A DNA stretch of 64,000 nt from positions 3,484,501 through 3,548,500 of the forward strand of contig OX638356.1 of the NCBI GenBank assembly GCA_951813395.1. Direction: 5' to 3'. A program made the position numbers and the translations under genes. This stretch comes from Longimicrobiales bacterium. GTDB lineage: Bacteria > Gemmatimonadota > Gemmatimonadetes > Longimicrobiales > Gaopeijiaceae. A model generated the notes under the pieces. The model was not told the DNA's origin and did not search any database. It saw only the letters and a program-made list of their open reading frames with translations. Each line of letters opens with the position of its first letter. Position 1 is the stretch's first letter. Shown here piece after piece: positions 259-48,900 of the stretch.

Positions 259-2235
259 CTAGCCCGAAGTTCGGGCCCGAATCGGGCTGATTCCTGGCCG
301 TAATCTGTTGTGGGCACGGGACTTGTACGCCAGTTCTCGTATGGGATATATGTACCCATGTAATAACAAGGTGATATCGTTGATATAACACATGATAGTC
401 GTTACGATCATAGTCATGTATATCGAACGCGTGCCCAATCGGAACTCCCCGCCCGCCGTCCTCCTGCGCGAGTCCTTCCGCGAGGGCGGCAAGGTCAGGA
501 AGCGCACCCTGGCCAACCTGTCGAAGTTGCCCGACGACATCGTGGACGGGCTGCGTATCCTGCTCAAGGGCGGCGTCGCCCTGAAGTCCTTCGGGGACGC
601 TTTCGAGATCCTGCGCTCCCGCCCCCACGGACACGCCGCCGCCGTGCTGGGCACGGCCCGCAAGCTGGGCCTCGAGAGACTGCTGGACCGCCGTCCGTCG
701 CGGATGCGGTCGCTGGCGCTGGCGATGATCGCGGCGCGCGTCCTCGACCCGCGCTCGAAGCTCGCCACCGCCCGCGGCCTCAGCTCCGAGACCCTGGCCG
801 ACACGCTGGGCGAGGAGACCGGCACGGCGGACGCGACGGCGGAGGAACTCTACGAGGCGATGGACTGGCTGCTCCGGCGGCAGAAGCGCATCGAGCGGAC
901 CCTGGCGGCGAAGCACATCGAGGACGGCTCGCTCGTGCTCTGCGACCTGACCTCGGTGTACTTCGAGGGCGCGAAGTGCCCGCTGGCCAAGCGCGGCTAC
1001 TCCCGCGACGGCAGGCGCGGCAAGCTGCAGATCGTCTTCGCCCTGCTCTGCGACCGGGACGGCTGTCCGGTGGCCGCCGAGGTCTTCCGTGGCAACACGG
1101 CCGATCCCGGCGCCGTGGCCTCCCAGGCCGAGAAGCTCGCCGCGCGCTTCTCGCTGTCTCGCATCGTGCTGGTCGGAGACAGGGGGCTGCTGACCGACGC
1201 CCGCATCCGCGAGGATGTCGAGCCGGCGGGGCTGCGTTGGATCACCGCGCTGCGGGCTCCGAAGATCCGCAAGCTGGTTTCCGGCGGCGACTTGCAGCTG
1301 TCGATCTTCGACACCCAGGACCTCGCCGAGATCTCCGCGCCGGAACTCTATCCGGGCGAGCGGCTCATCGTCTGCCGCAACCCGCTGCTGGCCGCCGAGC
1401 GGGCCCGCAAGCGCGAGGCGCTGCTGGCGGCCACGGAGGCCAAGCTCGACCTGGTCGTCCGGGCCACGAAGCGCGAGAACCGGCCGCTGCGGGGCGAGAA
1501 GAACATCGCCGTGCGCGCCGACCGGGCCCTGCGCGCGCACAAGGTCGGCAAGCACTTCACCACCACCGCGAGCGACGACGGCTTCTCGTGGGAGCGTGAC
1601 GAGGAGAAGATCGCCGCAGAGGCGGCGTTGGACGGCATCTACGTCATCCGCACCAACGTGGCTGCCAAGGAGCTCGGGCCCGAAGACGCGGTCCGGGCCT
1701 ATAAGAGCCTCAGCCGGGTCGAGCGTGCCTTCCGGAGCTTCAAGGGGGTGGATCTCAAGGTGCGGCCCGTCCACCACCGCCTCGAGGGGCGCGTCCGCGC
1801 CCACGTCTTCCTCTGCATGCTCGCCTACTACGTCGAGTGGCACATGCGCCGCGCGCTGGTGCCGATGCTCTTCGACGACGACGACCCGGCCGCCGCCGAA
1901 GCCGCCCGTTCCTCACCCGTCGCGCCCGCCCAGCGCTCGAAAGCCGCACGTGCCAAGGCGGGCAGGAAACGCACGCCCGACGGCCTGCCCGTCCACAGCT
2001 TCCGGAGCCTGCTCGGCGATCTCGCCACCCTGACCCGCAACCGCGTACGGCCCGCCGTCCCCGGTGCCATGACCGCCGACATGCTCGCCCGCCCCACACC
2101 GCTCCAGGCCAAGGCCTTCCGTCTCCTCGGCATCCGCCCTTGACCCGTACCCAGTAGCGTACACCCGCCGATCCGAGCTATGTCTCCGCCCTACAACGAC
2201 TTGACCCATCCCCCAACGGCCGAACTTCGGGTTAG
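259..2235 (+). mobile_element. IS1634-family insertion sequence (IS4 superfamily)
   Basis: The element is bounded by imperfect terminal inverted repeats. The left end reads CTAGCCCGAAGTTCGG (259-274). The right end read from outside is CTAACCCGAAGTTCG (2235-2221). It contains one transposase gene (416-2143) and is about 1.98 kb, which fits the family. I could not see a matching target duplication in the flanks (left ...CCGGCTG, right CCGTCGG...). The right end supplies the stop codon of the neighbouring minus-strand gene. Confidence 0.8.
416..2143 (+). CDS. IS1634-family DDE transposase
   Basis: This is the transposase of the surrounding insertion sequence, which catalyses cut-and-paste strand transfer at the element ends. 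The protein is 575 aa counted from MYIERVPNRNSPPAV, a typical N-terminus of this family; an upstream in-frame ATG at 392 would add 8 residues. The IS4-type catalytic core is visible: first Asp in VLCDLTSVYFEG, second Asp in IVLVGDRGLL, and the Y...E...K signature in YKSLSRVERAFRSFK. After it comes the usual family tail with VRAHVFLCMLAYYVEWHM. The reading frame is full length with no internal stop, so the element may still be active. No strong ribosome-binding site is seen upstream. Confidence 0.9.
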   Translation: MYIERVPNRNSPPAVLLRESFREGGKVRKRTLANLSKLPDDIVDGLRILLKGGVALKSFGDAFEILRSRPHGHAAAVLGTARKLGLERLLDRRPSRMRSLALAMIAARVLDPRSKLATARGLSSETLADTLGEETGTADATAEELYEAMDWLLRRQKRIERTLAAKHIEDGSLVLCDLTSVYFEGAKCPLAKRGYSRDGRRGKLQIVFALLCDRDGCPVAAEVFRGNTADPGAVASQAEKLAARFSLSRIVLVGDRGLLTDARIREDVEPAGLRWITALRAPKIRKLVSGGDLQLSIFDTQDLAEISAPELYPGERLIVCRNPLLAAERARKREALLAATEAKLDLVVRATKRENRPLRGEKNIAVRADRALRAHKVGKHFTTTASDDGFSWERDEEKIAAEAALDGIYVIRTNVAAKELGPEDAVRAYKSLSRVERAFRSFKGVDLKVRPVHHRLEGRVRAHVFLCMLAYYVEWHMRRALVPMLFDDDDPAAAEAARSSPVAPAQRSKAARAKAGRKRTPDGLPVHSFRSLLGDLATLTRNRVRPAVPGAMTADMLARPTPLQAKAFRLLGIRP

Positions 2236-2615
2236 CCGTCGGATCCTCCACCCAACGCGGCCACTGCCGCCCCGGCGACGCCGACAACCACGGCGCTGCC
2301 GATGGCCGCACCGACGAGCTCCGCGTCGATGGTTCCGGCTTCCACGCTGTGTGCCAAGCTCAGCAACGCCCCGTAGGTCGCTCCGGCTTTCGCACCGTCC
2401 ATCGCATCGGTCACGCCTCTCCATCCAAGTACCACGGCGAGCACGAGGCCGTGGAAGAGGCCCCCGAGCAGGCCAAAGGTAGACAAGTCGGCGTGCTCAT
2501 GGTGCCCGTGCGGGTGATGCCCGCCGACAAAAGGCACCATGTCGAGGATGTAGTCGGCCACCAGCAAAGCAACGGCTGCTACGATGGTGGGTTTCACGAG
2601 TTGCTTGATGTCCAC
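2232..2615 (-). CDS. small His-rich inner-membrane protein, possibly truncated by the IS
   Basis: The protein is about 127 aa and not assigned to a named family. It starts at a GTG (VDIKQLVKPTIV), chosen because GGGAG lies 6-7 bases upstream; an in-frame ATG further up would add an unlikely leader. Three or four hydrophobic segments are visible. A His cluster, GGHHPHGHHEHAD, follows the first one and could bind metal ions. The gene lies directly downstream of the metal-efflux operon on the same strand, so a role in metal handling is plausible but inferred. The last Gly codon and the TAA stop are made by the terminal repeat of the adjacent insertion sequence, so the natural C-terminus may have been lost. 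Confidence 0.65.
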   Translation of the reverse strand: MDIKQLVKPTIVAAVALLVADYILDMVPFVGGHHPHGHHEHADLSTFGLLGGLFHGLVLAVVLGWRGVTDAMDGAKAGATYGALLSLAHSVEAGTIDAELVGAAIGSAVVVGVAGAAVAALGGGSDG

Positions 2616-2735
2616 GGCGGTGCTCCCTTTGTGGAATGGACGGGGTACGGTGAGCCAAGCAGGCAAAATGGAGCGCGGGTCGTCGGTTCGCAAGCGCGTA
2701 CGAATTTTGTATACGAATTAGCCGCCAGGACTAGC

Positions 2736-5700
2736 TTAGCCCGTTTTCGTCGTCTCCCTCACCGGTATGTTCCCCCAACGCATGAAGAGGGCCGGAACGA
2801 CGACCATGTTGAGCAGCGTCGACGTCAGAAGGCCGCCGAGAACGACCACCGCGAGCGGCGCCTGAATCTCCTTGCCGGGTTCACCGATCCCCAAAGCGAG
2901 GGGGATCAGGGCAAGCCCGGCCGTGAGCGCAGTCATCAATATCGGACTCAGGCGTTCGACCGAGCCGCGGCGGATGGCGTCGGGGAGAGACATCCCGCCG
3001 GAGCAAAGATCCTGATACCGGCTCACGAGGAGCATCCCGTTCCGCACCGCGATGCCGAAGAGGGTGATGAAGCCGACCAGCGTGGCGACATTCACCGATC
3101 CGCCGATCAGCAGCACGGCGATCACGCCCCCCGTCAAGGCCAGCGGCAGGTTGACCATGAGGAACATGGCCGTGCTGAAGTTTCCGAACGCCCGGAACAT
3201 GATCATGAAGATCGCGCCGATCGAGAACAGCGAGAGTATGGTTATGCGGCGCGTAGCGGACTGACCGCTCTCGAACTGACCTCCGTACTGGATGTTGTAC
3301 TCGGGCGGAAGGTCCAAGTCATCGGCGATGTGTTGCTGTAGCTCGGTCACGGCGCCGATCACGTCGCGGCCGGCCACGTTGGCGCTCACGACGATTTTTC
3401 GCGACACGTTCTCCCGGGTGATCATGTTCGGCCCATGGGCCTGCACGATGGCGCCGAGCTGCGACAGCGGCACGGTCGGTCCCGCGGGAGTGGCGACCAG
3501 TGCGCCCCCGATGGCCTCCGGGTCGGCGCGGTAGTCGTCCGCATAGCGCACCATGAGATCGAAGGTCCGCTCTCCTTCGCGCACGATCGACACGACCTCG
3601 CCCTGCAGGGCGATATGCACCGCGTTCGCCAGCGTTCCCGGACTCACCCCGTAGCGAGCCATGGCGCGTCGGTTGGACCGGACCTGAAGCTGGGGCACCT
3701 CCGCCTGCTGCTCCATGGAAACGTCGACAAGGCCCTCGACCTCGTGCGCAATGGTCTCGATCTGCCCCGCGATCTGGCGCAGTTCCCGGAGATCGGGCCC
3801 GAACAGGCTGATCGCTATCGCGGCGCGCGTGCCCGAGAGCATGTGGTCGATGCGGTGGCCAATCGGCTGTCCCACCGTGATACTGGTACCCGACATCCCC
3901 GCCAGGGACTCGCGCACCTCGGCCATCACTTCGGCAAGCTCCCGATCGGTCAGATCAAGCTGCGCTTCGACGTGCGAGACGTTGACGCCCTGTGCCTCTT
4001 CGTCCAATTCCGCCCGGCCCGTGCGTCGGGCGGTGGAGACCACGGCCGGTATCCCGAGCAGCCGCGCCTCGACGCGATTGCCGATCTGGTTGGATTCCTC
4101 CAGGGAGGTGCCGGGAACGGTGATGATCGCGATTGTCAGCGACCCCTCCTGAAACTCGGGAAGGAATTCTCTGCCGAGTGTGGGAACCACCGCCAGCGTG
4201 GCGAGCAGCAGAGCCGCCGCGCCGACGAGAACCCGTCCCGAGTGCCGCAGGGACCAGCGCAGGACCCGGCTGTACAGGAACTCCAGTCCGCGTACCAGCC
4301 ATGGCTCCCGTCTTCGTCTGATCGAGCGGTCGGCCGGCAAAAGCAGATAGGAGAGCGCCGGGGTGATCGTGACTGCAATGAACAGTGACGAGAGGATGCT
4401 GATAATGTATGCCTGACCGAGCGGCATGAGCATTCGTCCCTCGACGCCGGTCAGGAAGAAGAGTGGAACGAAGACGATGGTGATGATGAGCGTCGCGTTC
4501 AGGATCGGATCGCGAATCTCTCTCGCGGCGCTGCGAATGAGCGGCAGGGTGGCGATGCGTTCGGCGGCCGGGCGGCGCAGGTTTTCGCGCAGCCGGCGAT
4601 GGACGTTCTCGACGAAGATGATCGCGTCATCGACGAGAGCTCCGATCGCTATGGCCATGCCGCCGAGCGTCATGGTGTTGACGGTACCCCCGAGGGCACG
4701 CATCACGATGATCGCAACGGCCAGCGACAGTGGGATGGCGAGCACGGAGATCAGCGTGGTCCGGACGTTCCACAGGAACAGCAGGAGGATGGCGATCACG
4801 AAGAAGGCGCCATCGCGAAGGGCGATGATCACGTTGTCGACGGCGAGCGAGATGAAGTCGGCCTGTCGGAAGATGTCCCGCTCAAAGGTGATCCCTGCGG
4901 GAAGGTCGCTCTCGATCTGATCCAGTTCGGCGTCGACCCTTCGCGTGAGTTCCAGCGTGTTCGCGCCCGCCTGCTTCTGGACCGAAAGAATGACCCCCGG
5001 CTCCCCGTTCACGGACCCTGTCCCGTAGGTGATCTTGGGGCCGATGCGCACCTCGGCCACGTCTTCAATCAGCACGGGCACTCTGTCGCGGGTCGCCACT
5101 ACCGTCACCCCGATGTCCTCGACGCTCGAGGGGCGCACCATGCCGCGGATCAGGATCTCGCGGCCACTCGACCAGTAGAGCCCGCCTGCCACGTTTTCGC
5201 TGGATCCCTCGATGGCGCCGAGCACGTCCTCCAGCCCCACCTGGTAGGCCAGGAGCCGCTGCGGATCGACCAGGACCTGGTATTCGCGCACGTCGCCGCC
5301 CTGCGAGATCACCTGGGAGACGCCGGGCACAGCCAGCAATCGGCGCCGCACGATCCAGTCAGCAGTGGTGCGCGCCTCCATCAGCTGGGATTCGGGAGCC
5401 ACCATGCCCACCAGCATGATCTCGCCCATGATTGAACTGATGGGTGCCAGGACAGGGGGATCCACCCCTTCCGGCAGATCGAGCGACTGGGCCTGAAGCC
5501 TCGCACCCACGATCTGCCTCGCGAGGTAGATGTCCGTGCCCCATTCGAAATCGGCCCATACGACGCTGATCCCCAGGGCGGACTTGGAGCGGACCCGGCG
5601 GACGCCGAGTGCGCCGTTCAGGGCGGTCTCGATGGGGAAGGTGATCGAAGTCTCGACGTCTTCCGGCGCCAGCCCATGGGCGTCGGTCACCACCGTGACA

Positions 5701-5861
5701 GTCGGAGCGGTCAGGTCGGGAAAGACATCGACCGGGAAGGTAGCGGCCACCCAGCTTCCGCCCACGAAAAGGCCCATGGCCAGAATGAGGGCCAGGAATG
5801 GATTGTTCAGGGAAGCGCTGACAAAGTGGTCGAGAATCCCCCGCCGCTCCGTTTCGTTCAT
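2736..5861 (-). CDS. czcA: CzcA/CusA-like heavy-metal RND efflux pump
   Basis: This is the inner-membrane proton-driven pump of a tripartite heavy-metal exporter. It is about 1,041 aa, the normal length for the HME-RND class. The start ATG (MNETERRGILDHFV) has GGAG at the right distance; a GTG 18 bases upstream is less likely. The sequence shows the family N-terminus (ASLNNPFLALILAMGLFV), the periplasmic porter loops with DVFPDLTAPTVTVVTDA, and the transmembrane segment 4 signature GALVDDAIIFVENVHRR with its two Asp residues near positions 411-412, which relay protons in CzcA. The second half repeats the fold and ends after a final membrane helix. The gene is third in an operon after the outer-membrane and adaptor genes, 24 bases past the adaptor. 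Metal specificity (Zn/Co/Cd versus Cu/Ag) cannot be read with certainty; the CDF neighbour favours Zn/Co/Cd. Confidence 0.92.
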   Translation of the reverse strand: MNETERRGILDHFVSASLNNPFLALILAMGLFVGGSWVAATFPVDVFPDLTAPTVTVVTDAHGLAPEDVETSITFPIETALNGALGVRRVRSKSALGISVVWADFEWGTDIYLARQIVGARLQAQSLDLPEGVDPPVLAPISSIMGEIMLVGMVAPESQLMEARTTADWIVRRRLLAVPGVSQVISQGGDVREYQVLVDPQRLLAYQVGLEDVLGAIEGSSENVAGGLYWSSGREILIRGMVRPSSVEDIGVTVVATRDRVPVLIEDVAEVRIGPKITYGTGSVNGEPGVILSVQKQAGANTLELTRRVDAELDQIESDLPAGITFERDIFRQADFISLAVDNVIIALRDGAFFVIAILLLFLWNVRTTLISVLAIPLSLAVAIIVMRALGGTVNTMTLGGMAIAIGALVDDAIIFVENVHRRLRENLRRPAAERIATLPLIRSAAREIRDPILNATLIITIVFVPLFFLTGVEGRMLMPLGQAYIISILSSLFIAVTITPALSYLLLPADRSIRRRREPWLVRGLEFLYSRVLRWSLRHSGRVLVGAAALLLATLAVVPTLGREFLPEFQEGSLTIAIITVPGTSLEESNQIGNRVEARLLGIPAVVSTARRTGRAELDEEAQGVNVSHVEAQLDLTDRELAEVMAEVRESLAGMSGTSITVGQPIGHRIDHMLSGTRAAIAISLFGPDLRELRQIAGQIETIAHEVEGLVDVSMEQQAEVPQLQVRSNRRAMARYGVSPGTLANAVHIALQGEVVSIVREGERTFDLMVRYADDYRADPEAIGGALVATPAGPTVPLSQLGAIVQAHGPNMITRENVSRKIVVSANVAGRDVIGAVTELQQHIADDLDLPPEYNIQYGGQFESGQSATRRITILSLFSIGAIFMIMFRAFGNFSTAMFLMVNLPLALTGGVIAVLLIGGSVNVATLVGFITLFGIAVRNGMLLVSRYQDLCSGGMSLPDAIRRGSVERLSPILMTALTAGLALIPLALGIGEPGKEIQAPLAVVVLGGLLTSTLLNMVVVPALFMRWGNIPVRETTKTG

Positions 5862-5885
5862 GTGGGCTCCGTTGTCCACGAACAG

Positions 5886-7718
5886 CTAGTGGGCATGACC
5901 GTCGGACGGCTCGACGACTCCAAGGGCGGCGAGGTTGACCTGGTAGGCACCCAGGGTGACGACGTGCTCGCCGGGGTCGATTCCCGACGCCACGATCGTC
6001 CAGGATCCATCCGAAGGGCCCGTTTCGACCACGCGGCGCTCGAAGGTGTCTCCGGTGAGCTTGACGTAGACGACCGGAAGATTGTTCTCGTCCTGGATTG
6101 CCGCGCTTGGAACCGCGACCCCCGGCACGGGTTGACCGAGGAGGATGTGCCCTTCAGCCAGCATTCCCACCTTCAGGTCCCCGCCGGAGTTTCCGACCGC
6201 GAAGCGGACCGGGAGGGTGCGGCTGGCCGGATCGATCATGTTGCCCACCGAGAGGACCTGGCTGGTCGTGTAGCTGCTCGTACCGCCTTCGACGGTGAAC
6301 CACGCGCCCCGGATCCGGTTCGCCTCGGCCGCGTAGCGCGCAGGCACCCGGGCGACCAGCCACAGTGTCGTCGCGTTTACGATCGTGAACGCGTGCCCGC
6401 CGATCTCCACCTGTTGGCCGAGGGCCGCGGCGCGCACCGCGACCACACCGTCGATCGGGCTTCGGAGACGGTACAGGTTCGGGTCGAGATCGTCGTTGAC
6501 GCCGTCCGCCGTACCGCCGATGGCTTCGAATGCGGCCGTGGCGACCTGGAGATTGCGCCGCGCGTCCTCCAGCCGGCGAGCCGGGATAGCGCCTTCCCCA
6601 AACAGGCGCTCGGCGCGGTCGGCCTCGAGCTGGGCGGCAGTCACGTCGGCTCGCGTGCGCACGAACGAATTGTCGAGACTGATCGGTGCGATCAGCGCCA
6701 GAAGCTGACCGGCGCGGACGAAATCGCCCGGTCCGACATGCGGGCCATCGACCTGGACGAGCCCCGCCACCGGGGCCGAAACGTGCACGAGGCCTCCTGG
6801 TGGGGCCACCAGTTCGCCGGCGGACGGAATCGAGGCCGGTATCTCCCGTTCTTCGGCTGCCGCCACGGCAAAAGGAATCGACCACTGCTCTTCCTTGGCC
6901 AGTGTGATCACCTCCGCGCCCGGGCCGCCGTCCTGGGCGTGATCGTGGCCAGCGTGCGCATCGTCCACCTCGGCGTCCGCCGGGTGATCGTGTCCCGCGT
7001 GCGGATCGTCGATCTCGTCTTCCTGGGCGTGATCGTGGCCAGCGTGCGCATCGTCCACCTCGGCGTCCGCCGGGTGGTCGTGTCCCGCGTGCGGATCGTG
7101 GGCCTCCTCCTCGGCGTGGTCGTGTCCCGCGTGGGCATCGTCCACTTCCGCGTCCGGCGGATGGTCGTGCCCCGCATGCGGATCGTCCACTTCGTCGTGC
7201 CCATGGCCCGCATGGGCGTCGGCCCCGTCGCCTGCGTGGGTGTGTCCCGCGTGTTCGTGGACCTCCTCTTCGGTTGCGAAAACCTCGACCTCGCCGCCCT
7301 CGATCAGGTAGTCACGCCCTCCGACCGACAGGGCGTATTCCGCGTGCCAGTATCCCTCCGACGGCAACGTGGGCGACGTGACATATAGGCCCGCGATTTC
7401 GGGCTCGGCGACGATTTCGTGGCGGGCGCCACGCGGCCCGTGCATCTCGATGGTGACGCTCGCGCCCTCGACCGGCCTCCAGTCATCGACCCAGGTGAGA
7501 TGAATCTCCCAGGGTTCTTCGCTCTCCACGCCCTGAATCTGATGCGGGTATTCCACGAAGAGTTCGATCCCTTCGGAGTGCTCCGTGAACGATCCGCCGC
7601 CACCGTGAGGGTCATGGCCCTGCGCAGCTTCATTCTCGCCCGCGGCGCCTCCGCATCCCGATACCGCCATAGCGATCACCGCACCCCGAACAAACGGCTT
7701 CAAAATCTTCAATCTCAT
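5886..7718 (-). CDS. czcB: CzcB-like periplasmic adaptor lipoprotein with His-rich repeat tract
   Basis: This is the membrane-fusion subunit that links the CzcA-like pump to the TolC-like channel. The start ATG (MRLKILKPF) is preceded by GGAGG. A lipoprotein signal ends in AVSGC near residue 21, so the protein should be anchored by lipid and face the periplasm. An N-terminal beta-rich domain (about residues 45-150) is followed by an exceptional His/Asp tract (about 155-262) of HAGHDH units in roughly 30-residue repeats. The classical barrel-sandwich/alpha-hairpin adaptor follows (SAPVAGLVQVDG..., LYRLRSPIDGVVAVRAA) and the protein ends with DGHAH. The family is usually 350-500 aa; the excess is the His tract and the extra N-terminal domain. 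The tract is very likely a metal sponge or sensor loop (inferred). Two bases separate this gene from the upstream outer-membrane gene. Confidence 0.9.
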   Translation of the reverse strand: MRLKILKPFVRGAVIAMAVSGCGGAAGENEAAQGHDPHGGGGSFTEHSEGIELFVEYPHQIQGVESEEPWEIHLTWVDDWRPVEGASVTIEMHGPRGARHEIVAEPEIAGLYVTSPTLPSEGYWHAEYALSVGGRDYLIEGGEVEVFATEEEVHEHAGHTHAGDGADAHAGHGHDEVDDPHAGHDHPPDAEVDDAHAGHDHAEEEAHDPHAGHDHPADAEVDDAHAGHDHAQEDEIDDPHAGHDHPADAEVDDAHAGHDHAQDGGPGAEVITLAKEEQWSIPFAVAAAEEREIPASIPSAGELVAPPGGLVHVSAPVAGLVQVDGPHVGPGDFVRAGQLLALIAPISLDNSFVRTRADVTAAQLEADRAERLFGEGAIPARRLEDARRNLQVATAAFEAIGGTADGVNDDLDPNLYRLRSPIDGVVAVRAAALGQQVEIGGHAFTIVNATTLWLVARVPARYAAEANRIRGAWFTVEGGTSSYTTSQVLSVGNMIDPASRTLPVRFAVGNSGGDLKVGMLAEGHILLGQPVPGVAVPSAAIQDENNLPVVYVKLTGDTFERRVVETGPSDGSWTIVASGIDPGEHVVTLGAYQVNLAALGVVEPSDGHAH

Positions 7719-7720
7719 TG

Positions 7721-8971
7721 TCAGTCCTCCAAGCCACCTCCCATGGCGCGAAGCAGGTCGTAGTAGGCAATCCACGCTTCGGACCGGAGAGAAAGGGCGC
7801 TCAGTTGCGCATTTTGAAACGCACTGGCTGCGTCGAGCAGTTCCAGCAACGACATTTCGAGTTCGGCGTAGGCCGCCGTCGCGGCGGACAGAAGCGTCTC
7901 TCCGTCGGCCAGCTGACCTGCCGCCACGGCTTCCAGCCGGGCCCGTCTGGCAGCGTACCGGTCCGAAGCCGTGGCCAGGTCGAACCGTGCCAGCTGCCGG
8001 CGCAGATCGAGGCGGTACGCGGCTGCGGAGCTGTAAGCTGCGGCTTCCGCCCGGGTTCCCGATCCGCGGTCGAAAAGCGGAAGCGGAAGATCCAATGCGA
8101 TGCTCGCGCCCCCGAATCCGTCCAGGTGATGCCGGTATCCAAGACCCAACGTCGGTTCTGGTATGGCGTAGGTCGCGGCGACTTCCTCCCCCGCCCGTGC
8201 GGCGTCCAGTTCCCGTGCCGCGGCCTCGAGATCGGGTCGCCCGGGCAGGGTCTGCAGGGCGGCCTCGCGAGTCAACATCGGGGGCACGCCGACTACCTCC
8301 TCGGAAGGCCCGACCTCCTCGGTCCCGGTCCCGGCGGCAATCAAGGTGGCCAGCTTTCTGCGGGCGTCGCGAGACCGCAAGGCCGCCTCGGCCACCTCCT
8401 GCTCGGCCTGTACGCGCTCCAGTCGCAACCGCAGGGTCTCGAATGCCGAGATGTCACCCGCCTCGAAGCGAAACTCGGCATCCTCGGCCACGCCCTGGAT
8501 GACCGAGGCGGTCTGGCGCACGATGCGTTCCGCCTCTTCGGCGAACCACGCCTGCACGTAGGCCTCCCGGACCTCGAAAGCCAATTCGATCGAGTCGGCG
8601 CGAAAGCGAGCGGCGCCAGCGCCGATTGCGTGAGTGGCAGCTTGCGCCCTCGCGGCCGTACGCCCAGGCCATTCCACGGGTTGCGCCAAGAGGAAGGTCT
8701 CTTCCCAGAACTTCTCATCTTCGTGGCCGAGGTCGTCGCGACCGAACGAAAATGCCGGATTGGCGTAGGCGCGGGACTGCCGTGCCGCCCCGGCAATCCG
8801 GGCGGTCTCGGACCGCGCGATCTTCAACGCAAGGCTGTTCTGGCCGAACTCCACGAGGGCCTGGGCCAGCGACACCCGGCGCACCGCATCCTGCCCATTG
8901 ACGGCCGGCGGGAGCAGGAAGAGACAGCCAAGGACCAGACCGAGGAAAGTTCGTGCTCCCGCAGTTGGCAT
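7721..8971 (-). CDS. czcC: TolC/CzcC-family outer-membrane efflux protein
   Basis: This is the outer-membrane channel of the metal exporter. The start ATG (MPTAGARTFLG) follows GGGAGGAG, giving 416 aa, normal for CzcC/TolC proteins. An N-terminal signal peptide (LGLVLGCLFLLPPAVNGQ) is followed by two internally related halves of long amphipathic helices rich in Ala, Arg and Glu (for example AARFRADSIELAFEVREAYV). Each half has the beta-strand pattern expected of the barrel, such as PAFSFGRDD and PTLGLGYRHHL. It is the first gene of the czcCBA-like operon, transcribed away from the CDF gene. The specific symbol rests on neighbourhood more than sequence. Confidence 0.85.
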   Translation of the reverse strand: MPTAGARTFLGLVLGCLFLLPPAVNGQDAVRRVSLAQALVEFGQNSLALKIARSETARIAGAARQSRAYANPAFSFGRDDLGHEDEKFWEETFLLAQPVEWPGRTAARAQAATHAIGAGAARFRADSIELAFEVREAYVQAWFAEEAERIVRQTASVIQGVAEDAEFRFEAGDISAFETLRLRLERVQAEQEVAEAALRSRDARRKLATLIAAGTGTEEVGPSEEVVGVPPMLTREAALQTLPGRPDLEAAARELDAARAGEEVAATYAIPEPTLGLGYRHHLDGFGGASIALDLPLPLFDRGSGTRAEAAAYSSAAAYRLDLRRQLARFDLATASDRYAARRARLEAVAAGQLADGETLLSAATAAYAELEMSLLELLDAASAFQNAQLSALSLRSEAWIAYYDLLRAMGGGLED

Positions 8972-10733: not shown

Positions 10734-10851
10734 AGAAATTCCCGCAATCTGGCGAGATTTCCCCGCTATTTCAGCACGGCGGGAGCAACTCCAGTTTGGG
10801 AGCAAGAAACGCAGATCGTGCAGTCCTGATTGAACTTACGTGATTTCTTGC
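10734..10851. repeat. 118-bp dispersed repeat, copy 1 (unoccupied IS1111 target)
   Basis: This segment aligns over 118 bases with 45759-45876, including the well-conserved block CGCAGATCGTGC. In the other copy the homology is interrupted exactly here by an IS1111-group element and resumes after it: ...TTGC|CGTGATTC here versus ...CTGC|IS|CGTGATTC there. The repeat has no open frame I recognise. It borders both the transposase scrap and the truncated toxin gene, so it may be the end of a lost mobile element. Confidence 0.6.
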
Positions 10852-11063
10852 CGTGATTCCGACCCTTGTTGCTCCGCCGCTGAGGCCGTGCCCCGCCTAC
10901 CCAGCTTGATATACCGGTGCAGGATTTCCTGAAGAACTTCCGTCGACGTCACCAGCCGAAGGCTCTGCCGGCGCGCACCATGAAAGAACCCGCGCGCCTC
11001 GTCCCGGAGAGGATGTTCCGACCCCACGAAGTACATGAAGACGTTCGTGTCGACGAAAACCAA
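10836..11063 (-). pseudogene. truncated PIN-domain (VapC-type) toxin
   Basis: This is an N-terminal part of a PIN ribonuclease toxin. It starts at a TTG (LVFVDTNVFMYFVGSEHPLR) with the first catalytic Asp in VDTN. It continues through LVTSTEVLQEILHRYIKLG, including the conserved Glu. A PIN toxin of this type needs about 130 residues, but after some 58 codons the sequence changes into the edge of the 118-bp repeat and ends at residue 75. The later acidic residues are missing, so the enzyme should be dead. It sits directly after the antitoxin remnant. Confidence 0.7.
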
Positions 11064-42516: not shown

Positions 42517-43626
42517 ATGGATGTCATGATCGAACGGTGCGCGGGCCTCGACGTGCACAAGAAGACCGTGGTGGCGTGCGTTCGTACGCCGGGCAGGGAG
42601 GTGGCCGGCCGGCACAAGGCTGTCCGCACGTTCGCGACGACGCTGGCGGGACTGGAGGCGCTCCGGGAGTGGCTTCGGGGCAACGGCGTGACCCATGTGG
42701 CGATGGAGTCGACGGGCGTGTACTGGAGGCCGGTCTACGTCGTGCTTGAGGACGACTTCGAGCTGTTGCTCGTCAACGCCCGCCACATCAAGCACGTTCC
42801 GGGGAGGAAGACGGATGTCCGTGATTGCGAGTGGGTCGCGCGGCTGCTGGAGTGCGGCCTGCTCAGAGGGAGCTTCGTTCCGCCGCCGGAGATCCGCGAT
42901 CTGCGAGACCTGACCCGTCTGCGGAAGTCGCTGATCGGCGAGCGGAGCCGCCAGATCAACCGGGTGGCGAAGACGCTCGAGATGGCCAACATCAAGCTGG
43001 GCTCGGTCGTGACGGACATCATGGGGAAGACGGGGCGGGGGATCCTGGATGCTCTGGCGGCAGGCGTCGAAGCCCCGGAAGCGCTCGCCCGGCTGGCACA
43101 GGGGTCGCTGAAGAAGAAGCGCAAGGAGCTGGCCGAAGCTACCGCCGGCCGGATGACGGAACACTACCGCTTCATGCTGGGCCACCGAGCCCGGCTCTTC
43201 GGCGACGTCGTCGCCAAGATCTCCATCGTTGCCTTCGATGCCCTCGTCGCCCAGGTGATGGCCCGTGAACCCTACCGGTCCGCCGAGCGCGTCTTCTGGA
43301 TCGTCGATGGCGGCACGATCCATCGCGGCCAGCGCGCCGCCGACCGTCTCCAGGCACGGTTCGACAACCTCACCCTGGTGCATCTGCCCACGCACGCCAG
43401 CTGGATGAACCAGATCGAGATCTACTTCTCGATCCTCCAGCGCAAGGCACTCACCCCCGCCCACTTCTCTTCCCAGGACGCAGTCGCCGAGCGCATCCTC
43501 GACTTCCAGCAGCACTACCAACAAATCGCCTCGCCCTTCGAATGGAAGTTCACCCGCTGCGATCTCAACCGCCTCCTGGCCCGCTCGCCCACCCCCGCCC
43601 ATCCCTCACTCCGCGAAGCCGCATGA
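42517..43626 (+). CDS. chimeric transposase: IS110 N-terminal half fused to IS630 C-terminal part
   Basis: The 369-aa reading frame is uninterrupted and preceded by AAAGGAGG. Residues 1 to about 222 are an IS110 recombinase RuvC-like domain with its complete DEDD tetrad: Asp12 (AGLDVHKKTV), Glu64 (AMESTGVYW), Asp100 and Asp103 (GRKTDVRDCEWVA). The linker helices (LRDLTRLRKSLIGERSRQIN) follow. From about residue 226 (LFGDVVAKISIVAFDALVAQ) it is an IS630-type DDE transposase: WIVDGGTIHRGQRAADRLQA (Asp264), HASWMNQIEIYFSILQRKAL (Glu301), and the family tail FEWKFTRCDLNRLLAR. The IS110 C-terminal serine domain and the IS630 N-terminal half with its first Asp are absent. Neither activity is expected, yet the fusion is seamless and in frame. 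Confidence 0.85.
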   Translation: MDVMIERCAGLDVHKKTVVACVRTPGREVAGRHKAVRTFATTLAGLEALREWLRGNGVTHVAMESTGVYWRPVYVVLEDDFELLLVNARHIKHVPGRKTDVRDCEWVARLLECGLLRGSFVPPPEIRDLRDLTRLRKSLIGERSRQINRVAKTLEMANIKLGSVVTDIMGKTGRGILDALAAGVEAPEALARLAQGSLKKKRKELAEATAGRMTEHYRFMLGHRARLFGDVVAKISIVAFDALVAQVMAREPYRSAERVFWIVDGGTIHRGQRAADRLQARFDNLTLVHLPTHASWMNQIEIYFSILQRKALTPAHFSSQDAVAERILDFQQHYQQIASPFEWKFTRCDLNRLLARSPTPAHPSLREAA

Positions 43627-43630
43627 GAAT

Positions 43631-43659
43631 ACGTCACCGAACTTCTGAACCGGTGTACC
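43631..43659 (-). repeat. likely right end of an IS630-type element
   Basis: Just after the chimeric gene lies TCACCGAACTTCTGAACCGG and then TGTACC, followed by TA. IS630-type elements insert at TA and carry terminal repeats there; read inward it is GGTACACCGGTTCAGAAG. The matching left end is missing, as expected if the IS110 segment replaced it. The TA plus the first G of this end also form the TAG stop of the minus-strand neighbour. Confidence 0.45.
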
Positions 43660-45505
43660 TAGTCGGCATTGCGACGGGAACGAAACTCCTCCAGGGCCCG
43701 AGCGCGGATCTCCTCGAACCTATGCTTCAGATAGGGATTCGGCCCAAGGGCGGCGGGCTCGTACCGATCAATGAGCCAATTGCCAAGGGACTCCTCGCGG
43801 TACGAGCGGTCTTCCAGCCGGGCCATCAAGATGTCATGCAGGCGGATCCCAGCCGCGAGGAGTGTCTCCAGCGTCTCCACGTCTCCCACATCTGCCCATT
43901 GGACGGGCTTAGCCTTCGGACTCTGAAGCATCACTCGCCGCCGCGTCCGTTGCTCGACGAGCCCGTACACCATGAAGTCGTTGGGCATGGTCTCCAACGT
44001 AACGACCAACGGCAGGTAGCTCTCGATACGTGACGGATCGACACCCTTCTCCGCGAGATGTCCTTCCTCGATGAGCCGAATCGTACCGGCAAACTGTTCA
44101 GCGGAATCACCGATGATGTCGTCGATCTTGCCGGACAGCGCTCCGATGTCGCCGTCTCTCCAAACGGGAAGATGCAACAGCGTTGCCTTGGCCTCGATCA
44201 GCACCACCGAGCCCTCGTAGACGATCACTGCGTCGCATTTCTTCGAGCCCGGGAGCGCAGGGTTGTCCAGGAATTCCGGCCCAAGGTATCGGCCTGATCC
44301 CCTCGGAAAGACACGACGAAGCAATCTGTCGATGTAGTCCTCGAAAACAGGTCCCATGTAGCCGAGGAACCTCCCGCTCTCTCTGCGGTCTTGGAGCCCC
44401 GTCAGGAAAATGTGAAACAAGCCTCGGGTCATCTTCCGGTGGAGGGAAGCGACCGACGGGCAATACGCTTTACCGTCATGAACGACGACAGGTGTGTCTC
44501 CCAACGGTAGGGGATCGAAGACGCGTAGATCGTCCACCCCACAACCACGACTCATCAGTTTCTGGCGGAGTACGTCAGCCCGCTCGGAGAAAAGGGCGAA
44601 GACTGCCCTTTCCTCATCGGAACGCAGATTGAGTGCCTCAAGAAAGGTGTCGACCGTCAGAAGCACCTTCGGGTGGTCGGTCTCTGTATTCGCAAGAGCA
44701 CCGAACATCGCCACGCTGGCTAGGGCGGGTGCGACATGGGTGATTCGCTCAAACAGCGCCAGCAGGTCGACGTAGCCGGCCTTGCTGCGTAGGTGCTGAC
44801 GGTCAGTTAGGTACAGGTCATGCGCGCGAGCGATGGCATGTTTGAAATTGCCGCCGTCGTGGAACAGCCGATTCGGCACGACATACCTGACCCATCGCAG
44901 AAGGTCGGCTCGTTCACGGATGCCTTGGGGCAACTCGTGGCTTCTCGTGTGCGTGGCGAGCAAATCGTTGACCATTAGCAGGGCCTCGCCGAACGCTTGG
45001 AGAGTAGCCGGGCCGCTTGCGGAGGCTGGAGGTACTTCGAGAAGTGCGATCTTGGCCGCGGTCACAACCTGAAGTTCGTGGAACACCTTGACAATCGGTG
45101 GAGCACCGAACTCTGAATCTGCGACCCTTGCGCGCCAAGCCTCGATATCGTTTTCGAGTTGGCCGGGGTCGTCAAACACACGGGAGATGAGCTCGCGCTG
45201 GGGCTTGATAGCGTCGTGATCCCCAGGCATCGAGATCCTCCAACTGATCGCGCCGAGGGTCGCGAGAACCATTTCGAGCCCGTAAGGCCGAAACCTTGCC
45301 ACGACATCATCATAGGTTGGAGCTGACCCGTGCAGGTCGGACCAAGATACGGAACTTGGGAGTTGTCCATAACGCTTGGTGTAAGATCGGAAGTCTGTTG
45401 GCCGTGACCCAGAGAATTGCGCAAGGGCAGGAAGAGGCCGCTTGCAGGGGAGCGATAGAAGGCGTAGTCGGGCTTGGGGAGCGGATCCCACGGGTCGTTG
45501 GTCAT
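43659..45505 (-). pseudogene. unrecognised protein with PD-(D/E)XK-like motif; apparent frameshift near the N-terminus
   Basis: I do not recognise the family. The main frame covers about 580 residues. Its C-terminal third has GSKKCDAVIVYEGSVVLIEAKAT, a good D-x(n)-ExK nuclease core (cut here: Asp in KKCDAVIVY, Glu and Lys in IEAKAT). The N-terminus seems to begin in another frame at ATG 45505 (MTNDPWDPLPKPDYAFYRSP, then LFLPLRNSLG) and to switch at a GGG run near 45410 into SRPTDFRSYTKRYGQ; one extra G would join them. If real, the gene is frameshifted; if not, translation starts inside. Its last codons touch the IS630-like end. Codon use is less GC-biased than neighbours, suggesting transfer. 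A role in DNA defence is a guess from the nuclease motif and the mobile setting. Confidence 0.6.
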
Positions 45506-45758
45506 GCGCGTCGTACGATCCGGTTAGACTGAAGGACTGCTGGTCGCGGCAGATGGGAGTAAAAGGTCGAGAACTCCGCGTCGTGAGGCAATCTACTGGG
45601 CAGCGGGAACGACAGCGGTGCGGCATCTGTCTCCCGAGTCAGTGTTCGGTCGGGCCTACGCGGAGGACGCCGCTGCGGAATGCTTGCGTAGTGCGCCGAT
45701 TTCAGCGACTTGGATCGGACGGCTGGATCGCTGGGCCACTTGGGCACAGATGGCGTGG

Positions 45759-45876
45759 AGGAGTCCCGCCATTCTAATCCGGTTTTCCCGCTTTCGCGGC
45801 ACGGTCCAGCAAGATCCAGTAGCACGACAGAAAGCGCAGATCGTGCGGCCCTGTAAGTAGTTAGACGATCTTCTGC
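45759..45876. repeat. 118-bp dispersed repeat, copy 2 (occupied by IS1111 element)
   Basis: This copy matches 10734-10851 over its full 118 bases and stops exactly where the IS1111-group element begins. The homology resumes on the far side at 47285 (CGTGATTC). It is the target site of the element. No coding capacity is evident. Confidence 0.6.
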
Positions 45877-45968
45877 CGATGGAGTGGACGCCCCCTCCCG
45901 GCGGCATCGCAATGTGCCAAGATGGTACTGAAGCGATTAGTCGACCATCTGAGGGAGGAGAGATCCAC

Positions 45969-46991
45969 ATGGAAGAGGTTAGCATCATCGGGATCGATCT
46001 GGCAAAGCGCAGCTTTCAGGTACACGGGGCGAGGGCGGACGGGTCGGTGGCGTACCGCAGAAAGCTGAGCCGGGGGAAGCTGCTGGGCTTTCTCGCCTCG
46101 CAACCGGGGTGTACGGTAGCGATGGAGGCGTGCGCCAGCGCCCACTACTGGGGCCGGGAGATCACATCGCTCGGCCACGAGGTGAGGCTGGTTCCCCCAA
46201 TCTACGTAAAGCCCTTTGTCAAGCGGCAGAAAAATGACGCTGCGGACGCGGAGGCGATCACGGAAGCGGCGCGGCGTCCGACCATGCACTTCGTGGCGGT
46301 CAAGTCAGAAGCCCAGCAGGCGCAGGGGATGCTCTTTCACACGCGTGACCTGCTGGTGCGCCAGCGCACGCAGACGATCAACGCGCTTCGGGGTCACCTG
46401 GCCGAGTACGGCGTGGTCGCTCCGCAGGGCAGAGCCCGGATCGGGGACTTGGCCGGAGTGCTGGAAGATGTGGACTCCGGCCTGCCGGGGGCGGTCGCCG
46501 AGCTGGGCCGGCTGCTGCTCGGGCGGATCGACGAGCTCAACGACAAGATCGATGGACTCGACCGGAAGATCCGGACGAGCGCGCGGGAGAACGAAGAGAC
46601 GGCGCGCCTGATGACGATCCCGGGAGTCGGGCCGGTCACCGCGATGGCACTGCAGGCCTTCGCACCGCCCATGGAGAGCTTCCGGTGCGGACGCGACTTC
46701 TCGGCCTGGCTCGGCCTCGTGCCGCGGCAGCACACGACCGGCGGCAAGCCGAGGCTGGGCAGGATATCGAAGATGGGCCAGCGAGACCTGAGACGCCTCC
46801 TGGTCATGGGAGCCATGACTGTTGTTCGGCACGCGAGCCGGCGCGGCGAGATCACGGATCGTTGGCTGGCCGGGATGTTGGCGCGCAAGCCGAAGATGGT
46901 GGTCGCGGTGGCGCTCGCCAACAGGACGGCGCGGAGGGTCTGGGCGCTGGCCACAAGGAAGGAGACCTATCAAGTTCGCACCGCCGCCTGA
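45969..46991 (+). CDS. IS1111-group (IS110 family) DEDD recombinase
   Basis: The 340-aa recombinase starts after GGGAGGAG. The RuvC-like domain carries Asp10 (IIGIDLAKRSFQVHG), Glu53 (VAMEACASAHYWGRE), Asp90 and Asp93 (QKNDAADAEAITEA). A coiled linker (LLLGRIDELNDKIDGLDRKI) leads to the Transposase_20 domain: MTIPGVGPVTAMALQAFA, then CGRDFSAWLGLVPRQHTTGG with the conserved Ser, and GRISKMGQRDLRRLLVMGA. All parts needed for RNA-guided recombination are present, in contrast to the chimera 2 kb upstream. The element should be competent to move. Confidence 0.93.
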   Translation: MEEVSIIGIDLAKRSFQVHGARADGSVAYRRKLSRGKLLGFLASQPGCTVAMEACASAHYWGREITSLGHEVRLVPPIYVKPFVKRQKNDAADAEAITEAARRPTMHFVAVKSEAQQAQGMLFHTRDLLVRQRTQTINALRGHLAEYGVVAPQGRARIGDLAGVLEDVDSGLPGAVAELGRLLLGRIDELNDKIDGLDRKIRTSARENEETARLMTIPGVGPVTAMALQAFAPPMESFRCGRDFSAWLGLVPRQHTTGGKPRLGRISKMGQRDLRRLLVMGAMTVVRHASRRGEITDRWLAGMLARKPKMVVAVALANRTARRVWALATRKETYQVRTAA

Positions 46992-47281
46992 GCGGTCGGC
47001 GAAAGGAGAGAAGCGAAAAGCAGAGAAGCTGACGGGAGAAGTGGGCAGTAGGACGGAAGGAACGGGGTAAGGGCAAACGGTCGACAAGACGGGGTCGGAA
47101 AAACCAGTGAATCACGGAGGGCCTATGAGCCCGGCCTGCCGATTTGGATCCGATCTCACGAACACCATACGGGCCCGCGGCCACAGATGGCTGCATCAAG
47201 AGGCCGGACATACGACAGTACCTGACCAGACTGCCACCAACTCGGTTCCGAAGACACGCTTGCCCACCCGGGGGCGTCCAC
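46992..47281 (+). ncRNA. candidate bridge RNA region of the IS1111 element
   Basis: In the IS1111 group the guide (bridge) RNA is encoded between the recombinase gene and the right end. Here 290 non-coding bases follow the stop codon: first a purine-rich run (GGCGAAAGGAGAGAAGCG), then mixed sequence including GGATCCGATCTCACGAACAC and CAAGAGGCCGGACATACGAC. The location and size agree with known cases. I could not fold it or match its loops to the target by eye, so the exact RNA limits are unknown. Confidence 0.45.
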
Positions 47282-47284
47282 ATA

Positions 47285-47634
47285 CGTGATTCTGGCCTCT
47301 GGCGATCCGCTGGGGGGAGGGCGGTCCGCCGGACCACCAACCCGCCGGCCGGTTCTCAAGCCAACGCCTGTCCCAAAACGCGGGAACGCAGTCCCATCCA
47401 GCTATGGACGGGTTCTGAAATGGCGGTTTCGGTGAGGTCCCGGACCTCTGCCACAATGGCCGCCAGGGGCCACAGGATGCCCCGGGCGGGGCGATCGGCG
47501 GTGCGGGACCCATTCGAAGCCGTCCCGAGGCGAGTTTTCGTGTCCTGGGCCATTACAGAGGGCCGAAAAACGGTAGTTAACTTATGGGGACAAATGCTAA
47601 CCCTTTGCCGGAACCCTACTTGGAGGATCAGAAC
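47285..47634. other. intergenic region upstream of the HNH gene
   Basis: The first 30 or so bases continue the target-site homology seen at 10852-10885. The remainder has no gene I would defend; a 65-codon minus-strand frame (47553-47356) lacks a ribosome-binding site. The last 60 bases are AT-richer (GGTAGTTAACTTATGGGG) and probably hold the promoter of the HNH gene. Confidence 0.4.
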
Positions 47635-48900
47635 ATGACCATCGCCCAACTTGGCGAGCGTATCGTCGAACTCGCCGCACGGATCAACATCGCCACCTAC
47701 GAGATGCTCACCCTCATCGCCGAGTTCGACCGTCGCGAGGGGTGGGCCGACGCCTTCAACTCCTGCGCCGAGTGGCTCGCCTGGAGCACCGGACGCACGC
47801 TCGGCACCTGCCGCGAGAACGTGCGGGTCGCCCACGCGCTACAGGACCTGCCCAAGACCTCGGCCGAGATGGAGGCCGGGCGGCTCTCCTACACCAAGGT
47901 GCGGGCGATCACCCGGGTGGCCACGAAGGCAACGGAAGGTGAACTGCTCGAACTGGCCGACAAGGTCTCCGCCGCCGAGCTCGAGCGGAGGGTGCGGGGA
48001 TGGCGGCACCTGTCGCGCGACGGCGAGTTGACGGCCGAGGAGGTGCGGCACCAGCGGCGCGCGTTCTCGGTGGTGATCGACGCCGACGGGACGTACGTGG
48101 TGCGCGGAAGGCTCGAGCCCGAGGCGGGGGCCGTGCTGATGCGGGCGATCGAGGCCGCAACGGACGCGCTGTACCGGGGCGAGGACCCCGCGGCGCGGCC
48201 GACGAGCCGCCAGCGCAGGGCCGATGCGGCGGGACTGGTGGCCGAGCGGGCGCTGGCGGCGGGGCTGAAGGCGGCGCACAGCGGGACGCGGGCCGAGCGG
48301 TACCAGGTGACGGTGCATGCCGAGATGGCCACGCTGGAGGAGCACGGCGAGGGTGGCCGGTCGGAGGTCGACGGGGTGCGGGTGAGCGCGGAGACGTCGC
48401 GGCGCATGGCGTGCGATGCGTCGCTGGTGCAAATGCTGCACCGGGAGGGGAAGGTAGTCAGCGTGGGGCGGAAGACGCGGACGATCCCGCCGCACCTCAG
48501 GCGCGCGCTCGAGGAGCGGGACCGGGGCTGCCGGTATCCGGGCTGCGGGGGCCGGTTCACGGAGGCGCATCATGTCAGGCACTGGGCCGACGGCGGGGAG
48601 ACGAGTCTGGCGAACACGGTGCTGCTCTGCCGGCGGCACCACCGGCTCGTGCACGAAGGGCGGGTGCGGATGGCGCTCGACGCGAAGGGTCAGGCGGTGT
48701 TCTTCACGCGCGGCGGCAAGATGCTGGGGAGCGTGCCGCCGCCGGTGAACGAGCCGAAGCTGACGCCGGCCCTGCCCCCCGCCCCACCGCTTCGGCCCGG
48801 GCAGATGTACAACGGCGCGGCCCGGCTCGCGGCCGGGGCGGTCCCGTGGGAGATCGAGGCCGCGGCGAGGGAGGCCGTCGAGGCAGGCGCCGGCGGGTGA
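47635..48900 (+). CDS. DUF222/HNH endonuclease-like protein (13E12 repeat family)
   Basis: The 421-aa protein starts at ATG 47635 with GGAGGA upstream; an earlier in-frame ATG at 47584 is less supported. The N-terminal DUF222 region is helical (EMLTLIAEFDRREGWADAFN, RAITRVATKATEGELLELAD). The C-terminal HNH domain is complete: RGCRYPGCGGRFTEAHHVRH, then WADGGETSLANTVLLCRRHH, RLVHEG, with Cys pairs and the HH...N...H catalytic/metal residues. Members are often multicopy and carried near mobile elements; the cellular role is not established. A Pro-rich tail (LTPALPPAPPLRPG) ends the protein. Downstream are the third copy of repeat B and a tandem repeat. Confidence 0.87.
   Translation: MTIAQLGERIVELAARINIATYEMLTLIAEFDRREGWADAFNSCAEWLAWSTGRTLGTCRENVRVAHALQDLPKTSAEMEAGRLSYTKVRAITRVATKATEGELLELADKVSAAELERRVRGWRHLSRDGELTAEEVRHQRRAFSVVIDADGTYVVRGRLEPEAGAVLMRAIEAATDALYRGEDPAARPTSRQRRADAAGLVAERALAAGLKAAHSGTRAERYQVTVHAEMATLEEHGEGGRSEVDGVRVSAETSRRMACDASLVQMLHREGKVVSVGRKTRTIPPHLRRALEERDRGCRYPGCGGRFTEAHHVRHWADGGETSLANTVLLCRRHHRLVHEGRVRMALDAKGQAVFFTRGGKMLGSVPPPVNEPKLTPALPPAPPLRPGQMYNGAARLAAGAVPWEIEAAAREAVEAGAGG

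What the first reader, a model, noticed from the sequence alone, without database searches (positions are those of the whole stretch)
45877..47284. IS1111 element mapped to the base, with a related empty site in the same window
The 12-bp sub-terminal repeats predict ends at 45877 and 47284. Removing that interval joins ...CTGC to CGTGATTC, which matches the uninterrupted sequence ...TTGC|CGTGATTC at 10851/10852. The matching 118-bp flank confirms that both loci are copies of one target. This gives a natural occupied/unoccupied pair to define target recognition. The shared CG at the junctions is a candidate core dinucleotide.
Basis: partly seen in the sequence, partly recalled or inferred. Interest (0 to 1): 0.72.

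Follow-up and report, generated by a model that had tools for sequence, protein, structure and literature searches.

The report
RNA-guided IS1111 element in a repeat
This is a small jumping gene of the known IS1111 family whose own RNA carries two short address labels matching the exact spot where it landed, one end of a repeated mobile element in a Gemmatimonadota genome; it is a well-documented new member of a known RNA-guided kind, not a new mechanism.

Summary
The element spans 45877-47284, with 12-bp sub-terminal inverted repeats and the 7-bp and 3-bp extensions that IS1111 requires. Joining the flanks restores a 143-bp repeat with about 15 other copies (some partial) in this genome and many in same-genus genomes; the best match runs gap-free through the junction. 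The 10.7-kb copy is a paralogous empty site, not an allele. Across 40 distinct guide pairs in relatives, guides match their own flanks far better than swapped ones (sum 500 vs 237, sd 10; maximum 295 in 20,000 permutations). The RNA fold has compensatory changes in 11 of 15 pairs. The element's first two bases equal those of the right flank in 39 of 43 relatives (CG, TG or AG), supporting a programmable core. The target repeat is most likely one end of an integrase-bearing element family; one copy carries a complete Zorya set. Expression and transposition are inferred. New member of a known kind.

The parts
45877..47284 (+). IS1111-family insertion sequence, 1408 bp
   Evidence: sub-terminal repeats, gap-free junction with empty copies, same ends in other copies
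45877..45878 (+). left copy of the core dinucleotide CG
   Evidence: equal to 47285-47286; the same rule holds in 39 of 43 relatives
45884..45895 (+). left sub-terminal inverted repeat GTGGACGCCCCC
45969..46991 (+). transposase, 340 aa, DEDD plus PF02371 domains
46992..47284 (+). 3' non-coding region
   Evidence: ORF list; scaffold conserved in relatives
47088..47162 (+). predicted seekRNA scaffold: outer helix 47092-47099/47149-47156, inner helix 47104-47106/47145-47147, hairpin 47119-47122/47129-47132
   Evidence: alignment of 52 elements, 11 of 15 pairs with changes on both sides
47109..47116 (+). right guide GAATCACG, reverse complement of right target CGTGATTC
47135..47141 (+). left guide CCTGCCG; CTGCCG equals left flank plus core
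47270..47281 (+). right sub-terminal inverted repeat GGGGGCGTCCAC
47285..47286 (+). right copy of the core dinucleotide CG
45760..45876 (+). left 117 bp of the interrupted 143-bp target repeat
47285..47310 (+). right 26 bp of the interrupted target repeat
10734..10885 (+). uninterrupted (empty) paralogous copy of the target repeat; insertion point would be 10851/10852

Best explanation
An apparently intact IS1111-family element. Its transposase uses an RNA folded from the element's 3' non-coding region (inferred from conserved structure). One RNA segment (GAATCACG) is complementary to the top strand right of the insertion point, the other (CCTGCCG) to the bottom strand left of it; together they direct the circular form of the element into TGC|CG|TGATTC near the 3' edge of a 143-bp dispersed repeat (the match is shown; RNA expression, circle and reaction are inferred from the family). 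The dinucleotide at the exchange point ends up on both sides. Relatives with other guide segments sit in other, matching sites. The target repeat is most likely one end of integrase-bearing mobile elements (inferred).
For: IS1111 anatomy. Joined flanks match empty copies gap-free across the junction. Conserved RNA scaffold: 96.8% of cells paired against 88.0% shuffled, 11 of 15 pairs with changes on both sides; RNAalifold gives the same structure unaided. Guides against own flanks: 43 elements, mean exact match 6.2/6.5 against 2.9/2.8 for other flanks, sum 545 against permuted 256.7 (sd 11.5, max 307 of 10,000); one element per guide pair: 500 against 237.3 (sd 10.5, max 295 of 20,000), own flanks uniquely best for 30 of 40, window element 14 against at most 8 elsewhere. 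Core equal on both sides in 39 of 43 and equal to the guide core in 38 of 43. Repeat and integrase: 9 of 10 integrase genes with intact 5' part have an inverted repeat copy within 20 kb upstream, random mean 0.25, max 4.
Against: Only one occupied copy of this repeat was found, so the element's own target consensus rests on one insertion plus relatives. Single-sequence folding of the RNA is not better than shuffles (z -0.19). No sigma-70-like promoter in the element. Donor-binding segments were not identified. Four of 43 elements break the equal-core rule.
Confidence: 0.93

Rival explanations
1. The element recognises the hairpin structure of the repeat (GGCAGGAAA...TTTCCTGCC), as a structure-specific recombinase would, and the guide match is incidental.
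For: The repeat has an inverted repeat and the insertion falls in its right arm.
Against: Relatives with nearly identical transposases sit in unrelated sites that match their own guides; permutation excludes chance.
Confidence: 0.03
2. The flank similarity reflects segmental duplication of one locus, not a dispersed repeat with a defined insertion point.
For: The two window loci are about 67% identical over some 140 bp.
Against: Copies at about 15 further places in this genome and in same-genus genomes share only the 143-bp unit and have unrelated surroundings.
Confidence: 0.02
3. About the target only: the repeat is an ordinary REP-like extragenic palindrome with no link to a mobile element.
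For: Short, palindromic, dispersed; REP sequences are known IS110/IS1111 targets (PMC11208160).
Against: Inverted pairing with an integrase in 9 of 10 cases; shared 16-mer just upstream of the integrase start; copies whose 3' edge abuts truncated integrase genes; a GGCGGGAATC motif after the integrase stop that matches the other edge of the repeat.
Confidence: 0.2

Closest known systems
IS1111 family with seekRNA (ISEc11, ISKpn4, ISPa11; Siddiquee et al. 2024, PMC11187229)
   Same: DEDD transposase of 330-350 aa, 12-bp sub-terminal repeats, 7/3-bp extensions, long 3' non-coding region, seekRNA with top-strand match 5' of bottom-strand match, natural retargeting among relatives
   Different: Different guide and target: a 143-bp repeat of a Gemmatimonadota genus; about 40 distinct guide pairs in one lineage
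IS621 / IS110 bridge RNA recombinases (Durrant et al. 2024, PMC11208160)
   Same: Two-sided RNA guide, core dinucleotide shared by both junctions, PF01548 plus PF02371
   Different: Non-coding RNA lies 3' of the gene, guide order is reversed, long sub-terminal repeats are present; core is NG here, CT in IS621
IS1111 elements in attC sites (ISKpn4, ISPst6, ISPa25)
   Same: Insertion into a palindromic, recombination-site-like repeat linked to a tyrosine recombinase
   Different: The repeat is linked to a 386-aa phage-type integrase and is not shown to be an attC site
IS4321/IS5075 in Tn21 terminal repeats
   Same: IS1111 element addressed to the end of another mobile element
   Different: The hit element here appears to be an integrase-bearing element, not a Tn3-family transposon

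Membership tests
IS1111 | DEDD RuvC-like N-terminal and PF02371 C-terminal domains, 330-350 aa | tested here: met
   PF01548 and PF02371 above cut-off, 340 aa; NF033542, 325 bits against cut-off 140
IS1111 | sub-terminal inverted repeats of 11-13 bp | tested here: met
   12 bp, perfect
IS1111 | asymmetric extensions of 7 bp (left) and 3 bp (right) | tested here: met
   45877-45883 and 47282-47284; junction fixed by empty copies
IS1111 | longer non-coding region downstream of the transposase gene | tested here: met
   293 bp downstream against 92 bp upstream
IS1111 | GL-P----S(t)G motif in the C-terminal domain | tested here: met
   GLVPRQHTTG in the translation
IS1111 | seekRNA with segments matching both target strands, top-strand complement first | tested here: met
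   sequence, covariation and flank-swap test
IS1111 | RNA expressed and bound by the transposase | not testable with these tools
   needs RNA co-purification
IS1111 | circular intermediate | not testable with these tools
   needs reads or PCR across the circle junction
IS110 in the strict sense (IS621 type) | longer non-coding region upstream of the gene; no long sub-terminal repeats | tested here: not met
IS1111-attC group | target is an integron attC site (RYYYAAC ... GTTRRRY) | tested here: inconclusive
   GTTAGAC lies near the site but no matching RYYYAAC arm was seen by eye; associated integrase matches only PF00589; no specific attC or IntI test was run

The most novel reading that the evidence does not exclude
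In this genus the IS1111 lineage has diversified by exchange of guide segments so that different copies address conserved sites of different mobile elements (ends and integrase genes of integrase-bearing elements; IS3, IS21, IS30, IS630 and IS110 transposases). They would act as RNA-guided hyperparasites that break the ends of defence-carrying integrative elements, with a guide repertoire that follows the mobile elements present.
Probability: 0.25. Interest if true: 0.6.

Novelty: new member of a known kind. Interest (0 to 1): 0.42.

Why it matters
It gives a natural data set (40 distinct guide pairs with their own insertion flanks, plus very many empty copies of one target) from which the pairing rules of IS1111 guides, including the allowed core dinucleotides, can be worked out. 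It also points to an integrase-bearing, defence-carrying element family in a Gemmatimonadota genus as the thing being hit. The mechanism itself is already published.

Tried and rejected
Chance similarity of the two loci: rejected. A true allelic empty site in another genome of the genus: searched with joined flanks; only paralogous repeat copies were found. Other occupied copies of this repeat: none seen among the listed matches (the lists are cut). Rfam at gathering threshold: nothing in the window. Single-sequence folding energy as support for the RNA: uninformative. Sigma-70-like promoter within the element: none. A first version of the guide test had wrong left anchors for some elements and was replaced, which leaves out elements whose ends could not be parsed. 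Donor-binding segments: CCATACG (near 47164) and ACATACG (near 47206) resemble right end plus core, but donor ends are too conserved for a swap test, so no claim is made.

Full report
SETTING. The window is 3,484,501-3,548,500 of a single-contig 4.09-Mb genome. The closest named relatives of the element are Gemmatimonadota MAGs; by coordinates, one complete genome of the same genus (G022) is record OX639991.1, labelled Longimicrobiales.

THE ELEMENT. A perfect 12-bp inverted repeat lies at 45884-45895 and 47270-47281. The transposase (45969-46991, 340 aa) has the DEDD and PF02371 domains and passes the NCBI model for IS110-family RNA-guided transposases. Other copies in this genome are partial: an interrupted 87% copy, left-end remnants starting at the same base, and a right-end remnant ending CATA followed by CG.

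THE TARGET. Joined flanks are significantly similar to the 10.7-kb site; both belong to a 143-bp repeat (45760-45876 plus 47285-47310). This genome has 16 matches to the repeat consensus, the occupied one included and some of them partial, and 21 of the 22 other genomes of the genus show copies in the listed matches. A gap-free alignment across the junction with the copy at 27 kb fixes the insertion point to the base, apart from the shared 2-bp core. The exact 12-mer CTGCCGTGATTC occurs once in the genome outside the occupied site, and that place is a repeat copy.

THE GUIDE RNA. In the 3' non-coding region a scaffold (GGG.TCGG.AAAACCAG, variable segment, hairpin, variable segment, ATTTGGA.CCGATC) recurs in relatives from Gemmatimonadota to Alphaproteobacteria. 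In 52 aligned elements 15 pairs form three helices; 96.8% of cells are paired (88.0% after shuffling), 11 pairs show changes on both sides, and sliding the partners by one column drops pairing below 50%. RNAalifold predicts the same structure unaided. The variable segments are the guides. Here they read GAATCACG, the reverse complement of the right flank CGTGATTC, and CCTGCCG, of which CTGCCG equals left flank plus core. The guide complementary to the top strand lies 5' of the other, the order reported for IS1111 and opposite to IS110 (PMC11187229).

THE TEST. For 43 elements with recognisable ends, the longest exact match of each guide with its own flank averages 6.2 (left) and 6.5 (right), against 2.9 and 2.8 for flanks of other elements; the sum is 545, while 10,000 permutations give 256.7, sd 11.5, maximum 307. 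With one element per distinct guide pair (40) the sum is 500 against 237.3, sd 10.5, maximum 295 in 20,000; own flanks are the single best match for 30 of 40, and the window element scores 14 on its own flanks and at most 8 on any other. Guide positions come from the scaffold and were not searched for, so scanning adds no multiplicity.

THE CORE. The first two bases of the element equal the first two of the right flank in 39 of 43 elements (CG 17, TG 20, AG 2), and the left guide carries the same dinucleotide in 38 of 43. Two exceptions (L129, L130) have right flanks CA and CC that match their own right guide, while the left end is CG. The core is therefore best read as guide-determined on each side and usually identical.

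WHAT THE REPEAT IS. It contains GCAGATCGTGCAGTCC, which occurs 2-47 times in each of 23 genomes and never in the reversed control. The 16-mer has two contexts: inside this repeat, and just upstream of the start of a multi-copy 386-aa tyrosine integrase. In the two complete genomes, 9 of 10 integrase genes with an intact 5' part have the repeat in inverted orientation within 20 kb upstream (random mean 0.25, maximum 4). Between repeat and integrase lie varied genes: a complete Zorya A-B-C-D set, a relaxase, a TmtA-like protein. In G001 and G008 the 3' edge of the repeat abuts truncated integrase genes. The simplest reading is one end of an integrative, perhaps mobilisable, element family. This is inference: no segment was shown to move.

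TARGETS OF RELATIVES. Joined flanks of relatives translate into IS30 (three elements), IS630 (two), IS21 (one, weak) and IS110 (one) transposases. The 87% copy in this genome carries guides that match an IS3-like transposase site in which a left-end remnant lies, and another left-end remnant sits between two fragments of the integrase gene. Five copies in G022 share one guide pair and one target motif. That IS110/IS1111 elements insert into repeats and other mobile elements is already known (PMC11208160, PMC11187229).

VERDICT. Observation confirmed, interpretation supported, and the missing piece, the guide RNA, found and tested by swapping flanks. Expression of the RNA, its binding by the transposase and the transposition reaction are inferred from the family. 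New member of a known kind, useful as a natural retargeting data set.

Noticed in passing
window 10811-10826 and 45836-45851; all 23 genomes of the genus: The 16-mer GCAGATCGTGCAGTCC occurs 2-47 times per genome (reversed control 0), both in the target repeat and about 25 nt upstream of a multi-copy 386-aa tyrosine integrase gene.
   Followed up: partly
L264 (genome 3,261,500-3,277,500): ZorD 1178-4567, ZorC 4516-6057, ZorB 6054-6926, ZorA 6945-8804, all minus: A complete type I Zorya defence set lies between a copy of the target repeat and the integrase.
   Followed up: partly
L266:5001-6998 and L270:1373-3160 (G022): Relaxase (PF03432) and a TmtA-like protein near repeat copies and integrases: the elements may be mobilisable and carry varied cargo.
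   Followed up: partly
window 43659-45626 (-): 655-aa protein next to the occupied repeat; weak match, far below cut-off, to the antiphage GapS1 family (32.5 bits against 320).
   Followed up: no
window 42517-43626 (+): One open frame joins the N-terminal half of an IS110-type transposase to the C-terminal part of an IS630-type DDE transposase; probably an insertion or deletion fusion.
   Followed up: no
window 47311-47584, upstream of the gene 47584-48900 (+): A 240-310 bp repeat with at least 9 further copies in this genome at 90-96% identity lies upstream of a DUF222-HNH gene and abuts the target repeat.
   Followed up: no
L048, L049, L050, L127, L146 (G022): Five copies of a related element share one guide pair and sit at the same motif (TCCACG / CGGACTGCTAG); the same motif follows integrase genes or repeat copies elsewhere.
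   Followed up: partly
downstream of integrase stop codons, e.g. L264 after 13481, L262 after 5802: GGCGGGAGTC / GGCGGGAATC motifs, the reverse complement of the first bases of the target repeat; possible recombinase arm sites.
   Followed up: no
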